Part shown: positions 2,144 to 19,595 of the stretch, one piece after another
Layout of the letters: each line of letters starts with the position of its first letter
Position numbering within the stretch: position 1 is the stretch's first letter
Origin: Planctomycetota bacterium
GTDB taxonomy: Bacteria; Planctomycetota; Planctomycetia; Gemmatales; Gemmataceae
Reading direction: 5' to 3'
Assembly (NCBI GenBank): GCA_016191165.1
Contig: JACPPF010000009.1
Span: forward strand, 1 to 48,890
Length of the DNA: 48,890 bases
The notes under the pieces: generated by a model
The model's input: the letters and a program-made list of their open reading frames with translations, nothing else
Databases searched by the model: none
What the model was told of the DNA's origin: nothing
Made by a program: the position numbers and the translations under genes

Positions 2144-2234
2144 ATCGAGGCCCTTTTCCCAACCGTCATCCAAACATAAAACGGGACTCCACGGACGCTT
2201 CTTCGAAGCGTCGCCACCCACGAGGATGTTCCCG

Positions 2235-5200
2235 ATGCGAAACCTCTGCCGCTCGTTCGTGTTTTGTATCACTTTCATCTCCATGGCCGCGCTGGCCCGC
2301 GCCGAGATCATCATCGCCGAGGGTGAGTCGTTCACGCCGCTCGACAAGAAGGGCTGGAAGATCACGCACCAGCAAGACAGCTACGGCAGCCACACCTATG
2401 GCGGCATGTGGATGAGCCAGGGCGGCTGTCTCGGCGCGCCGGCCGACAGCGCCGGGGCGATCGCCAAACGGACCATCGTCATCAAAGACGGCGGCGCCTT
2501 TCGCGTTTGGAGCAAGTATCAGGCGCCGCCCTACTTCAACTACCTGCACAAGGTCGAGATCGTGCAGAATGGCAAGACCGTATTCTCCCACGTCTATGGC
2601 AAGAAGGGGACCGATCGTCTCTGGAGTTTCAGCGGCGTCTCCGATGAACTCTGGTGGCCCTGGGGTGTCGATCACGATTGCGCCGAGGCCCCGAAAGCCA
2701 CGGTCACGCTGAAACCCGGCGCTGCGGAGATTCGGCTCATCACCGTCGCGCAACCAAAGCCGGCGGGCGACCGCTTCGTCGATTTCCTGGTGCTGACAAC
2801 GAATCTCAAGGATGAGTACAAGGGCTTCAAACCCTATTCGGTCGGCAGCCCCTTCGCGTTTGAAGCGCTGGACGCCACCAAACTCTTCCTTCGCTTCAAA
2901 AACACCAGCGGCAAGTTCGCATTCTTGAGCGTCAGTCGGGCGGGACATTTTCAACCGAACTATGGCGGCGGATCCATCACCGTTCCCAATCCAGGCAGCC
3001 CAAAAGCACCGTTGACGCCGGGCGTCGCGCCGGGACAGTGGAGCGAGTGGTTCAACATCGGCCCGTTCTGCCGGCTGGTCCATGACGAGGGCTTGACCGT
3101 GACGCTGCCCGGGGCCGCGACGTTTGACCTGCAATTCGCGCGCGATCCCCTTGGCAAGACATTGGTCGGCGACATGAAAGCCGTCTCGGGCGAACCGGTG
3201 GTCGTCCCCATCGATATCACCTGGCAAAAGAACGCCCGCGTCCGCCCCAGCCGCGATTGGGCCGCCGAGATCATCAAAGACAGCAAAACCTGGCGCAAGG
3301 CTAACGGCGGCAAGAAGCCGAAGGAGATCGCCTACTACGGCGCCTTCTCCGGCAACGAGGACTGGGTCCACGAATTGAAGGCGACCCTCGGCTACAATAC
3401 GATGCTCCCCGCCAAGTATGAACAGCTCAAGCGAGGTCATCTTCACGCTCACACGCACAGCATTCCTGACATCGAAGCCTTCGCCAAGCGATTCACCGCC
3501 AAGGACTCGCTGCGCGTCCTCTCCTTCGGCGACGAGATCAGCCTCGGCAACATCAACTTCAAGGACGCCAACCTCAACAAAATGTTTCGCGTCTGGCTGA
3601 AAACAAAGGGCATCACCAAGAACGACCTCGGCGTCGAGCCCGGTAACGCCGTCCTCACCGCATATAGCCCCGGCTTTAGCCGGGGCAGTTCGGAGCGCCG
3701 CCTCGCATGGTGGAGTCAGCAGTTCAACGAGGAAGAACGCTTCGCCGCCTATCGCGCCATGACGGCGCGGGCCAAGGAGCTATTCGGCAAGGACGTGCTA
3801 ACCGGCGCCAACTACTCGCCGCACCATGGCTGCCTGTACTATGGCCCGATCTACCAGTGGGTGGACATCTTCAAGCACAAGGGCATGTCGATGATCTGGG
3901 CGGAGGATTACATTTTCAGCGTGCCCGAGGTGCCGCAGATCATTTCGTGGAGCTTCGCTCAGATGCGCTGCGCCGCCAAGTATCACAACACGCCGATCCA
4001 TTATTACGTGATGCCGCACGCGCCGGGCCAGGAGCCAGGATTCCTGCGGCGAAACATGGTGCTCTCCATCGGTTTCGGCGCGAGGCACATCGACAACTTC
4101 TGGGTCGCCCCGGCCGAGCGCTACACCGAGAACTACGTGTCGTGGAAATACAAGGACACGTTCCGTGTGTTGAGCGAGTCAATCTACGATTCCGCCGAGG
4201 TCGAGAAATTCGTCGTCGAGGGCAAGGTGCGCCCCGCCCAGGCCGCCATCATCATGAGCAAGGCGACCGATTACAACGAGAGCCGACTGATGGTCCCGAA
4301 GGCCAAGGATCCGTTCGCCGCTCAATGCAAGAACGCGCCGGCGATGGTCAACCAGACGCTGTGCCGGAAGGAACAGCAGATGCTGTATTTGGCGTTGCGT
4401 CACGCCCAGCACGCGGTCGATTGCATCACGGAGGAGGACATTCTCGAAGGCTACCTGAAGAACCTCAAGGTCGTCTACTTCGCCGGCGAATGGATCGACA
4501 ACCGCATCATCCCGAAGCTGGAGGAATGGGTCAAAGCCGGCGGCGTTCTCTACTGCTGCGGTGGTTGTGGCCACAAAAACCAGTACGACGAACCCGAACC
4601 CGCGATGCTGAAACTGCTGGGCCTGAAGAGCATCAAGACCACAAAGAACGCGTATCACATGCGCACGCTGCTGGAGTTGCCGCTGGCGGAGCCGATGGAC
4701 ACCTTCGGCGATGTCAAGCTGCCGGCGGTCGGCATGAAACAGGTGCTGGCTCCGGGTGAGGCCAAGGTCTATGCGAAATGGAGTGATGGGAGTGCGGCCG
4801 TGACGACCCACGCGATCGGCAAAGGGCACGTTGTTGCCGCGGGAGCGCTCACCGGAACGTCCACCGTCAAGACGGCCGTCCGCCCGATTCCCTGGGCCCG
4901 CGGCGGTCGCTACATGCCCTACAATCCCGTCAGCGCTGACTTGGATTCACCGCAAATGGTGACCTTGGGAACGGCGTTCTCCAATCCCCCCAAAGACGTG
5001 GTCGCATCGAATCCGCACGTCGAGGGCATTGTAATCGATCACAAAGGCGGAACGCTACTCACACTCGTCAACTGGACGAACGCCAAGGTGCTCAACATGA
5101 TCGAGATCGAAGTCCGCATGAAGGACTCCCCGAAGACCGTCCGTACCGTCAGCGGCCAGCGCAATCTGGCGTTCACGCACAAGGACGGCATCGTGCGTTT

Positions 5201-5246
5201 CAACATCGACCTGGCCGAAGCGGATTATGTGGTGCTGCGGAAGTAG
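2235..5246 (+). CDS. Large secreted glycosidase-like protein
   Basis: This is a 1,003-residue exported protein. The start at 2235 has GAGG nine bases upstream and gives a clean signal peptide ending ALARA; an ATG at 2226 is in frame. After an N-terminal beta-rich part (about 25-210, with 'WSKYQAPPYFNYLHKVEI'), residues about 330-650 look like a TIM-barrel. Acidic candidates there are in SFGDEISLG (about 435) and IWAEDYIF (about 556). Residues about 690-890 resemble the glutamine-amidotransferase-like domain found after the barrel in GH42-type enzymes (EWVKAGGVLYCCGGCG, then GKGHVVAAGA). This architecture suggests action on a polysaccharide, but family and substrate are inferred. The stop codon TAG is the first part of a REP element (5243-5266), and a palindrome is read in frame at 3667-3686. 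Confidence 0.6.
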   Translation: MRNLCRSFVFCITFISMAALARAEIIIAEGESFTPLDKKGWKITHQQDSYGSHTYGGMWMSQGGCLGAPADSAGAIAKRTIVIKDGGAFRVWSKYQAPPYFNYLHKVEIVQNGKTVFSHVYGKKGTDRLWSFSGVSDELWWPWGVDHDCAEAPKATVTLKPGAAEIRLITVAQPKPAGDRFVDFLVLTTNLKDEYKGFKPYSVGSPFAFEALDATKLFLRFKNTSGKFAFLSVSRAGHFQPNYGGGSITVPNPGSPKAPLTPGVAPGQWSEWFNIGPFCRLVHDEGLTVTLPGAATFDLQFARDPLGKTLVGDMKAVSGEPVVVPIDITWQKNARVRPSRDWAAEIIKDSKTWRKANGGKKPKEIAYYGAFSGNEDWVHELKATLGYNTMLPAKYEQLKRGHLHAHTHSIPDIEAFAKRFTAKDSLRVLSFGDEISLGNINFKDANLNKMFRVWLKTKGITKNDLGVEPGNAVLTAYSPGFSRGSSERRLAWWSQQFNEEERFAAYRAMTARAKELFGKDVLTGANYSPHHGCLYYGPIYQWVDIFKHKGMSMIWAEDYIFSVPEVPQIISWSFAQMRCAAKYHNTPIHYYVMPHAPGQEPGFLRRNMVLSIGFGARHIDNFWVAPAERYTENYVSWKYKDTFRVLSESIYDSAEVEKFVVEGKVRPAQAAIIMSKATDYNESRLMVPKAKDPFAAQCKNAPAMVNQTLCRKEQQMLYLALRHAQHAVDCITEEDILEGYLKNLKVVYFAGEWIDNRIIPKLEEWVKAGGVLYCCGGCGHKNQYDEPEPAMLKLLGLKSIKTTKNAYHMRTLLELPLAEPMDTFGDVKLPAVGMKQVLAPGEAKVYAKWSDGSAAVTTHAIGKGHVVAAGALTGTSTVKTAVRPIPWARGGRYMPYNPVSADLDSPQMVTLGTAFSNPPKDVVASNPHVEGIVIDHKGGTLLTLVNWTNAKVLNMIEIEVRMKDSPKTVRTVSGQRNLAFTHKDGIVRFNIDLAEADYVVLRK
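3667..3686. repeat. Palindrome inside a coding region
   Basis: Arms GCCCCGGC (3667-3674) and GCCGGGGC (3679-3686) around TTTA are read in frame within the secreted glycosidase-like gene, giving the residues YSPGFSRGSSE. The sequence matches the layout of the intergenic palindromes in this window and looks like an insertion into the gene without loss of frame. Confidence 0.7.
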
Positions 5247-5304
5247 GTCAGGCTTTCCAGCCTGACACGCTCGGCCAAACGTCAGGCTGGAAAGCCTGAC
5301 CTAC
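5243..5304. repeat. REP + inverted REP pair (BIME)
   Basis: A REP unit at 5243-5266 starts with the tetranucleotide GTAG and then forms a hairpin with arms GTCAGGCT and AGCCTGAC around TTCC. Its mirror image is at 5281-5304 and ends CTAC. The TAG in the first GTAG (5244-5246) is the stop codon of the upstream gene. The GTAG foot plus hairpin is the known layout of bacterial REP elements mobilised by RAYT transposases. Confidence 0.85.
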
Positions 5305-5307
5305 GGA

Positions 5308-5448
5308 CGCTCCGAAGACCGTCCGTACCGTCAGCGGCCAGCGCAATCTGGCGTTCACGCACAAGGACGGCATCGTGCGTTTCAACATCGACCTGGCCGA
5401 AGCGGACTATGTGGTGCTGCGGAAGTAGGTCAGGCTTTCTAGCCTGAC
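5308..5448 (+). pseudogene. Duplicate of the upstream gene's 3' end, with REP
   Basis: Positions about 5309-5428 repeat 5127-5246, the last ~37 codons of the secreted glycosidase-like gene and its TAG, almost base for base (for example GCGGACTAT against GCGGATTAT). The copy then continues into another REP (5425-5448, with one loop change, TTCT). There is no start and no full domain, so it is a partial duplication carrying its REP with it. Confidence 0.85.
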
Positions 5449-5483
5449 GGGAGCGCCCTAGGCAGGTCGTTCAGTCCAAAAAC

Positions 5484-5699
5484 GTCAGGCTGGAAAGCCT
5501 GACCTACGCCGACGTCAGGCTGGAAAGCCTGACCTACGCCGACGTCAGGCTGGAAAGCCTGACCTACGCCGACGTCAGGCTGGAAAGCCTGACCTACGCC
5601 GTGACCTACGCCGACGTCAGGCTGGAAAGCCTGACCTACGCCGACGTCAGGCTGGAAAGCCTGACCTACGCCGACGTCAGGCTGGAAAGCCTGACCTAC
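5484..5699. repeat. Tandem array of seven inverted REPs
   Basis: Seven copies of the inverted REP (GTCAGGCT-GGAA-AGCCTGAC-CTAC) start at 5484, 5514, 5544, 5574, 5616, 5646 and 5676. The period is 30 bp because each 24-bp element is followed by GCCGAC. One 12-bp slip (GTGACCTACGCC) lies between copies 4 and 5. The last copy ends 5 bp before the ATG of the RAYT gene. There are no unique spacers, so this is not a CRISPR array. Confidence 0.92.
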
Positions 5700-5704
5700 C
5701 AGCC

Positions 5705-6373
5705 ATGAAGCGACATTACCAACGACATCTGCCGCATCAAGTTCCGGAAGGGTTTCCGATCTTTTTGACGTGGAACCTCAAGGGGGCATTTCCACCGGAG
5801 GCGATCGCCAGGATTCGCGAGGAAAGGGAACGTCTCGAACGCGAACCAATTTGCTTGGATGAAACTTCCGCTGCGAGACGTATTCGTCACGACAAGCTTG
5901 CATTTGCCTATTCGGATCGCATCCTGGATGCCGGCGCGGAAGGTCCTCTCGATCTCAAGGACGCGTCAAATGCAAAGATCGTTGAAGGCTCAATCCTTTT
6001 TGGCGTGCCGGAACGGTACGAGCTTTTCGCATGGTGTGTAATGGCCAATCACGTCCACGTATTGCTGCACCCGATCTGGGAATTGCCGCGAATCACCAAG
6101 GGCATCAAGGGGTTCACCGCCCGTGAAATCAACAAAAAACAGCAGGAAGTCGGCCGCGTTTTCTGGCAAGACGAGTCGTACGACCACTGGGCGCGCGACC
6201 ACGAAGAGGTAATGCGAATCATCGCGTACACCGAGGACAACCCAGTGACGGCCGGGTTGTGCGTTAGGCCGGAAGATTGGCCGTGGTCCTCGGCGCGATT
6301 TCGCGCCGTGTGGGAAGTAGGTCAGGCTTTCCAGCCTGACATGCAGCCAAAAACGTCAGGCTGGAAAGCCTGA
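5705..6373 (+). CDS. REP-associated tyrosine transposase (RAYT)
   Basis: This 222-residue protein is a Y1/HUH single-strand transposase of the IS200-related RAYT group. The metal-binding HUH motif is visible as ANHVHVLLHP (about residues 113-122). It is followed by the family blocks KGFTAREINKK, FWQDESYDHWARD and IAYTEDNPVTAGLCVRPEDWPWSSA. The catalytic tyrosine is probably in or near the ESYDHW block, which I infer from position. RAYTs recognise REP hairpins with a GTAG foot, and such elements lie on both sides of this gene. The array ends 5 bp before the ATG, leaving no usual ribosome-binding site. The final ~19 residues (VGQAFQPD ... SGWKA) are the translation of a REP pair, so the original C-terminus was probably replaced. 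Confidence 0.9.
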   Translation: MKRHYQRHLPHQVPEGFPIFLTWNLKGAFPPEAIARIREERERLEREPICLDETSAARRIRHDKLAFAYSDRILDAGAEGPLDLKDASNAKIVEGSILFGVPERYELFAWCVMANHVHVLLHPIWELPRITKGIKGFTAREINKKQQEVGRVFWQDESYDHWARDHEEVMRIIAYTEDNPVTAGLCVRPEDWPWSSARFRAVWEVGQAFQPDMQPKTSGWKA

Positions 6374-6378
6374 CCTAC
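6317..6378. repeat. REP/inverted-REP pair overlapping the RAYT 3' end
   Basis: A REP at 6317-6340 (GTAG foot) and its exact mirror image at 6355-6378 are separated by 14 bases. The coding frame of the RAYT runs through both and stops inside the second at 6371-6373. Confidence 0.88.
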
Positions 6379-6382
6379 AAAC

Positions 6383-6493
6383 GCCCTGAAGACCCTCAGC
6401 GGCCAGCGCAACCTGGCGTTCACGCATAAGGACGGCGTCGTTACGTTTCGGCTTGACCCGGCGGAAGCCGTTTATGTGCTGCTGATGCGGTGA
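6383..6493 (+). pseudogene. Diverged remnant of a glycosidase-like 3' end
   Basis: Reading from 6383 gives ALKTLSGQRNLAFTHKDG followed by VVTFRLDP and ending YVLLMR with a TGA at 6491-6493. This aligns with the C-terminus of the gene at 2235-5246 (KTVRTVSGQRNLAFTHKDG, ... YVVLRK) but is clearly diverged. It is therefore an older, third copy of the same gene end, now only about 36 codons long. It suggests that a related gene once stood here and was mostly lost. Confidence 0.75.
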
Positions 6494-19295: not shown

Positions 19296-19423
19296 GGTTT
19301 TTCTCTCCAATCGGGGATTTGGAAATCAATCGCATTTGAGCGCCTGAACGACGGTGTTCCTACTAACTATAGGCCGAGGGGTTTGCCAAGGCAACGAAAA
19401 TCCGGGTAGTGGTACAGTCTGAA

Positions 19424-19485
19424 GTAGGTCAGGCATTCTTGCCTGACAGCAGCCGCTAAATGTCAGGCTGGAAAGCCTGACCTAC
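19424..19485. repeat. Dispersed REP/inverted-REP pair
   Basis: A REP with GTAG foot at 19424-19447 (loop ATTCTT, slightly changed) faces an intact inverted REP at 19462-19485 ending CTAC. The whole is enclosed by TGGTACAGT (19410-19418) and its inverse ACTGTACCA (about 19491-19499). This is a copy of the element at 5243-6378, 13 kb from the transposase. The remainder of the 19296-19595 gap has no other visible feature. Confidence 0.85.
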
Positions 19486-19595
19486 GGCAAACTGTACCAC
19501 CACCAAAATCCGTGCAGATTGCCGGAGTCCCGCGGCGGGCGGCACGCTGGTCTTCTGGCTTGAAGTCGCGGAAAGATTCCCGTAACATCGTCTTC

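What the first reader, a model, noticed from the sequence alone, without database searches (positions are those of the whole stretch)
5243..6378. Complete RAYT/REP system in a planctomycete-like genome
The transposase at 5705-6373 has the HUH motif and the RAYT block pattern. The surrounding elements have exactly the layout known for REPs: a GTAG foot, an 8-bp hairpin and paired inverted copies. A further pair sits at 19424-19485. The match of enzyme and elements in one place suggests an active or recently active domesticated transposase system.
Basis: partly seen in the sequence, partly recalled or inferred. Interest (0 to 1): 0.6.

Follow-up and report, generated by a model that had tools for sequence, protein, structure and literature searches.

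The report
RAYT transposase with its REP repeats
A lake-type planctomycete carries one conserved single-copy enzyme of the known RAYT family together with about 365 copies of the short hairpin repeat that flanks it; the pair looks like the REP/RAYT systems already known from other bacteria, so it is real but not a new kind of thing.

Summary
ORF 5705-6373 is a RAYT: Pfam Y1_Tnp; the best structural match of its model is E. coli TnpAREP (4er8); the catalytic H, H, Y and N are conserved. Twelve REPs (GTAG foot, 8-bp stem, 4-nt loop) lie around it and two more at 19424-19485. Genome-wide there are 263 exact copies and 365 with up to 2 mismatches; reversed control 0. 39 of 44 mapped sites are intergenic in DNA that is about 86% coding. 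Within the genus, the three species with the orthologous RAYT (same locus, dN/dS about 0.04-0.07) carry 365, 143 and 103 copies; the four without carry 52, 36, 18 and 11. Other RAYTs are flanked by their own REPs, most abundant in that genome, and RAYT similarity tracks REP similarity (Mantel r 0.42, p 0.0002). The sister clade shows compensatory stem and foot changes (GTACGTCGGGC, 336 copies in one genome, 0 in this genus). Current activity is not shown: copies could be relics. Two other genomes with many copies lack a detected orthologue, but their assemblies are 82% and 69% complete. Verdict: a new planctomycete member of a known kind (GTAG REPs, REPINs, REPtrons).

The parts
5705..6373 (+). 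RAYT / TnpAREP gene (222 aa; catalytic core to about 6316; last 18 codons are REP sequence)
   Evidence: Pfam Y1_Tnp 2.6e-8; NCBIfam REP_Tyr_transpos 4.3e-18, 65.6 bits, below its cut-off of 80; 4er8 by sequence 9.5e-5 and by fold 1.9e-7
6050..6058 (+). HUH motif codons H116-V117-H118
   Evidence: invariant H116 and H118 in alignment A1
6227..6241 (+). catalytic tyrosine Y175 to N179 (YTEDN), equivalent to Y115/N119 of E. coli TnpAREP
   Evidence: alignment to 4er8; invariant in A1
5243..5304 (.). REPIN 1: inverted REP pair 5243-5266(+) / 5281-5304(-), 14-nt spacer; its GTAG supplies the TAG stop of the upstream gene
5425..5448 (+). REP after the duplicated tail of the upstream gene
5484..5699 (-). 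head-to-tail array of seven REPs (5484, 5514, 5544, 5574, 5616, 5646, 5676), period 30 with one 42-bp unit, ending 5 bp before the RAYT start codon
6317..6378 (.). REPIN 2: inverted pair 6317-6340(+) / 6355-6378(-), overlapping the 3' end of the RAYT ORF
19424..19485 (.). REPIN 3: inverted pair with asymmetric loops (ATTCTT / TTTCCA)
19410..19499 (.). larger composite: REPIN 3 inside an outer inverted repeat (GGTACAGT / ACTGTACC), 4 copies in the genome
2226..5246 (+). neighbouring gene (weak beta-galactosidase trimerisation domain match) at whose 3' end the RAYT lies in three species
5308..5427 (+). duplicate of the 3' tail of the neighbouring gene
   Evidence: 95% identical over 41 aa
6380..6487 (+). 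third, diverged copy of that tail, downstream of the RAYT
   Evidence: 64% identical over 36 aa

Best explanation
This is a REPtron: a single-copy, vertically inherited RAYT (TnpAREP) with its cognate GTAG-footed REPs. By analogy with characterised TnpAREPs, the enzyme binds the single-stranded REP hairpin, uses the GTAG foot as a guide, cuts near the REP with Y175 at the H116/H118 metal site, and transfers the strand, so that REP pairs (62-bp REPINs: two inverted REPs with a 14-15 nt spacer) are copied to new, mostly intergenic sites. Shown here: family membership, intact catalytic residues, purifying selection, genome-wide family size, larger family size with the RAYT within the genus, and co-variation of RAYT with flanking REP across genomes. 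Inferred: ssDNA cleavage, copying by this enzyme, and the recency of copying. The tandem array and the duplicated gene tails are most likely secondary products of recombination or slippage at REPs.
For: RAYT identity. REP count 263 exact, control 0; up to 2 mismatches, RAYT+ species 365/143/103 vs RAYT- 52/36/18/11, i.e. 21-50 vs 2-9 per Mb. 39/44 sites intergenic vs 86% coding background, p about 1e-28. Spacer of 14 nt in 21 and 15 nt in 6 inverted pairs. RAYT at the same gene border in three species, dN/dS about 0.04-0.07. 27/50 RAYT loci carry their own repeated GT[AG]G hairpin vs 0/500 shuffles and 0/15 unrelated loci. The REP of another RAYT is most abundant in its own genome: GTACGTCGGGC 336 in G023, at most 8 elsewhere; GTGGGGCAGAC 76 in G035, at most 6 elsewhere; GTGGGGCAGGT highest in G041 (95) and G044 (28), the two genomes whose RAYTs it flanks, 15 and 14 in the next two, at most 5 elsewhere. 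Mantel r 0.42, p 0.0002; still r 0.31, p 0.0004 for pairs below 45% identity.
Against: G041 (125 exact copies, assembly 82% complete), G049 (166, 69% complete) and G016 (26, 100% complete) have the REP but no detected close orthologue of this RAYT. The Mantel signal could reflect shared descent of RAYT and REP rather than direct recognition. No REP insertion or excision event was observed; the duplicated gene tails show recombination also at work. The within-genus comparison rests on seven draft genomes (permutation p 1/35) whose relationships were not resolved.
Confidence: 0.88

Rival explanations
1. The REPs are relics: the RAYT once spread them but now only binds them or has another host function; the present copies are maintained or amplified by ordinary recombination and slippage.
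For: Head-to-tail 30-bp array and duplicated gene tails at the RAYT locus look like slippage or recombination; in G001 the RAYT is intact but only 39% of REPs are exact.
Against: 72% of copies in G000 and G004 are exact versus 25-31% in RAYT-less congeners; catalytic residues are conserved and the gene is under purifying selection.
Confidence: 0.3
2. An IS200/IS605-type insertion sequence with subterminal hairpins that still moves as a unit.
For: Same HUH/Y1 fold class; IS200 transposases are the next structural matches.
Against: Single copy in the genome, the other four family hits being 25-40% identical; the same locus is occupied in three species; REPs far outnumber transposase genes; the best fold match is TnpAREP, not TnpAIS200; the Y motif is YxxxNP, not YxxxQ.
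Confidence: 0.04
3. The repeats are transcription terminators or mRNA-stabilising hairpins selected independently of the RAYT.
For: Intergenic location and strong hairpins; such roles are known for REPs elsewhere (PMC3733652).
Against: The printed sites show no run of T after the hairpin; foot and loop sequence are conserved beyond pairing needs; copy number goes with RAYT presence and the sequence matches the local RAYT. May be a side effect, not the origin.
Confidence: 0.06

Closest known systems
E. coli TnpAREP / RAYT (PDB 4er8) and its GTAG REPs
   Same: HUH/Y1 fold (best PDB match); H, H, Y, N and foot-reading W, Q, H, R at equivalent positions; GTAG foot next to a hairpin
   Different: About 40 residues longer in the core region, with an extra helical stretch before the HUH strand; D160 in place of E100; REP stem perfect, without the bulge that the E. 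coli enzyme requires (PMC8266576)
TnpAY1 subclasses 2.4 and 2.7 of PMC6006769 (Bertels group 4 = 2.4)
   Same: NHVH, WQ and, in sister species, YIxNNP motifs; long perfect GT[AG]G REPs; REP sequence inside the RAYT genes of some relatives (L103, L106) and at the C-terminus here
   Different: Subclass was not assigned with the published profiles; HuH-Y distance is 59 aa here against a median of 88 in 2.4
GTAG REP families of PMC3733652, which reports GTAG repeats in the PVC superphylum including Planctomycetes
   Same: GTAG tag, palindrome, head-to-head pairs, clusters with flanking DNA, intergenic preference, repeat-specific RAYTs
   Different: This sequence family was not found in the passages read; the genera Pirellula, Rhodopirellula, Blastopirellula and Gemmata are not named in its text
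Pseudomonas and E. coli REPINs (PMC3116915, PMC8049555)
   Same: Inverted REP pairs with short variable spacer; single-copy vertically inherited RAYT; more REPINs in genomes with a RAYT
   Different: Different phylum, RAYT subgroup and REP sequence

Membership tests
RAYT / TnpAREP | Y1_Tnp HUH fold | tested here: met
   Pfam 2.6e-8 above cut-off; 4er8 top fold match E 1.9e-7
RAYT / TnpAREP | HUH, WQ, catalytic Y with N four residues on | tested here: met
   H116, H118, W154, Q155, Y175, N179 invariant in 12; W, Q, Y, N near-invariant in 59 RAYTs
RAYT / TnpAREP | Reaches the curated NCBIfam REP_Tyr_transpos cut-off (a database threshold, not a biological feature) | tested here: not met
   65.6 bits against 80; all 12 clade members match this family. 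The extra N-terminal stretch probably lowers the score
RAYT / TnpAREP | Single copy, vertically inherited | tested here: met
   One orthologue per genome, same locus in G000, G001, G004
RAYT / TnpAREP | Binds and cleaves single-stranded REP | not testable with these tools
   needs biochemistry
GTAG REP / REPIN | GTAG foot plus hairpin flanking the RAYT | tested here: met
GTAG REP / REPIN | High copy number in the genome | tested here: met
   263 exact, 365 with up to 2 mismatches
GTAG REP / REPIN | Extragenic | tested here: met
   39 of 44 sites by a simple gene call
GTAG REP / REPIN | Inverted pairs of fixed spacing | tested here: met
   14-nt spacer in 21, 15-nt in 6 inverted pairs
IS200/IS605 insertion sequence | Multiple near-identical copies of the transposase gene | tested here: not met
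   single copy
TnpAY1 subclass 2.4 | Profile assignment by the published subclass models | not tested
   models not on hand; motifs fit NH[IFV]H, WQ and, in sister species, YIxNNP

The most novel reading that the evidence does not exclude
In this planctomycete RAYT clade, foot and stem of the REP change in step with the enzyme within a short evolutionary span: GTAGGTCAGGC becomes GTAGGTCAGCC, GTAGGTCGGGC or GTACGTCGGGC with compensatory changes in the other arm, including an abundant natural GTAC-footed family (336 copies in one genome), which is outside the published GT[AG]G rule. If the foot guides the choice of cleavage site, as shown for one Marinomonas enzyme (PMC8266576), this clade would be a natural series of retargeted single-strand transposases, with residues 24 and 115 as candidates for reading the third foot base.
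Probability: 0.35. Interest if true: 0.5.

Novelty: new member of a known kind. Interest (0 to 1): 0.3.

Why it matters
It extends the well-studied REP/RAYT partnership to a freshwater planctomycete genus with a clean comparison inside one genus (RAYT present versus absent, 2- to 33-fold difference in copies) and gives a dense series of related enzymes with different REPs, useful for working out how a RAYT reads its foot and stem. It does not overturn or extend the known mechanism.

Tried and rejected
One search used a wrong loop length and its zeros were discarded; one search repeats it correctly. Flank analysis for a cleavage dinucleotide: CT lies 4-5 nt before the foot in 11/34 GTGG REPs of G041 and 10/35 GTAC REPs of G023 but only 10/83 in G000, and copies are not independent, so no conclusion. 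Foot-associated residues (24: R/N with GTAG, C/R with GTGG; 115: N with GTAG, S/D or N with GTGG) are confounded by phylogeny and kept as a lead only. Foot alone does not track RAYT similarity among distant pairs (r -0.01). A search for the cognate RAYT of G041's 125 GTAG REPs failed: its RAYTs are flanked by other hairpins or by none. The REP string in the literature gave only unrelated papers. Dating insertions by empty sites was not possible, since the nearest species share only about 70-84% protein identity in the neighbouring gene.

Full report
What is there. ORF 5705-6373 encodes 222 aa that match Pfam Y1_Tnp (2.6e-8) and NCBIfam 'REP-associated tyrosine transposase' (4.3e-18, but 65.6 bits against a cut-off of 80). 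The closest solved sequence is E. coli TnpAREP 4er8 (9.5e-5), and an AlphaFold model (mean pLDDT 85.7) has 4er8, solved with a REP hairpin, as its best PDB match (E 1.9e-7), ahead of IS200-type transposases. H116, H118, W154, Q155, Y175 and N179 are invariant in 12 relatives, and the last four nearly so in 59; they align with the HUH, W94, Q95, Y115 and N119 of the E. coli enzyme (alignment; roles from PMC6006769).

The repeats. Twelve exact copies of GTAGGTCAGGCnnnnnnGCCTGAC surround the gene and two more form the pair 19424-19485. The GTAG is unpaired, followed by an 8-bp stem and 4-nt loop; a pair folds as one long hairpin. Seven of them are a head-to-tail array with 30-bp period that ends 5 bp before the start codon, where the congeners G004 and G001 have purine-rich leaders that could serve as ribosome sites; here none is visible. 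The last 18 codons of the ORF, and the TAG stop of the upstream gene, are themselves REP sequence.

Genome-wide. The own genome (7.2 Mb) has 263 exact copies, reversed control 0, and 365 with up to two mismatches. At 44 mapped sites, 39 are intergenic although about 86% of that DNA is called coding by a simple ORF method (p about 1e-28). In inverted pairs with the foot outside, the spacer is 14 nt in 21 cases and 15 nt in 6, while its sequence varies. Several contigs begin or end in REP arrays.

Dependence on the RAYT within the genus. Orthologues (78-81% identical) occur in G001 and G004 and not in G002, G003, G005, G006. Copies with up to two mismatches: 365, 143, 103 with the RAYT; 52, 36, 18, 11 without; densities 50, 21, 29 versus 9, 7, 3, 2 per Mb; fraction exact 0.72, 0.39, 0.72 versus 0.25-0.31. 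With seven species the ordering alone has p 1/35. In the three RAYT-bearing species the gene sits at the 3' end of the same neighbouring gene; in the others that gene is followed by something else. dN is 0.11-0.15 and dS 1.7-2.9, the latter near saturation. This is the pattern of a vertically inherited, selectively maintained gene. Across genera the location differs.

Exceptions. G041 (125 exact copies, 82% complete), G049 (166, 69% complete, same genus as RAYT-bearing G023) and G016 (26) have no detected close orthologue. G041's own RAYTs are flanked by other hairpins or none. Missing sequence is the easiest reading for G041 and G049, but this is not shown.

Co-variation. Of 50 RAYT loci in relatives, 27 hold a repeated exact GT[AG]G hairpin of their own, against 0 in 500 shuffled loci and 0 of 15 unrelated loci. 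The flanking REP of a given RAYT is most abundant in that genome: GTACGTCGGGC 336 in G023, 8 in its congener, 0 in the other genomes searched; GTGGGGCAGAC 76 in G035, at most 6 elsewhere; GTGGGGCAGGT 95 in G041 and 28 in G044, 15 and 14 in G009 and G042, at most 5 elsewhere. In the clade closest to the window's RAYT (56-81% identical) the REP changes by compensatory steps: TCAGGC/GCCTGA, TCAGCC/GGCTGA, TCGGGC/GCCCGA. Over 59 RAYTs from several phyla, RAYT identity and REP identity correlate (Mantel r 0.42, p 0.0002), also for pairs under 45% identity (r 0.31, p 0.0004), through the stem rather than the foot. Shared descent can produce this without direct recognition, so it supports pairing but does not prove specificity.

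Mechanism. From published work on TnpAREP (PMC8266576): the enzymes bind single-stranded REP, the GTAG foot takes part in recognition or cleavage-site choice, and cuts fall at a nearby CT (or CA) dinucleotide. The residues needed are present here. Copying of REPINs to new sites by this enzyme, and any host benefit, are inferred. Flanks did not give a clear cleavage site.

Where it belongs. It meets the tested biological features of a RAYT with GTAG REPs; the one unmet row is a database score threshold. GTAG repeats in the PVC superphylum including Planctomycetes are on record (PMC3733652), co-evolution of tnpAREP and REP has been proposed (PMC6006769), and higher REPIN number with a RAYT is shown in E. 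coli (PMC8049555). Named relatives confirm a planctomycete setting: G001 corresponds to the MAG contig VGZI01000169.1, 'Planctomycetota bacterium K_Offshore_80m', and other close RAYTs are from Baikal, Isosphaeraceae and other planctomycete MAGs. Hence a new member of a known kind, interest 0.3.

Noticed in passing
window 5160-5246, 5308-5427, 6380-6487: The 3' tail of gene 2226-5246 is present three times around the RAYT. In congener G002, without RAYT, the same gene also has a second tail copy about 590 bp downstream with unrelated DNA between, so this gene end seems prone to duplication.
   Followed up: partly
window 19410-19499; L095, L096, L097: REPIN 19424-19485 sits inside an outer inverted repeat GGTACAGT/ACTGTACC; four such composites of equal length exist in the genome, so a longer MITE-like unit seems to have spread.
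   Followed up: partly
L005 (G000:C126), L002 (G000:C82): Another Y1 transposase-like gene of this genome is flanked on both sides by a different hairpin, GCGTTCCCAGGC-n-GCCTGGGAACGC (a candidate TIR-type pair); a second such gene has one such hairpin.
   Followed up: no
[quoted passage not shown] in L103 the second histidine of HUH appears lost.
   Followed up: no
G041: 125 copies of GTAGGTCAGGC REPs plus 95 of GTGGGGCAGGT REPs in one genome; only the second has a RAYT flanked by it in the assembly.
   Followed up: partly
window 5461-5704: The REP array upstream of the RAYT has units of 30 and 42 bp, all multiples of three, so the RAYT frame stays open through the array (QAGKPDLRRR repeats), without an in-frame start codon.
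   Followed up: partly
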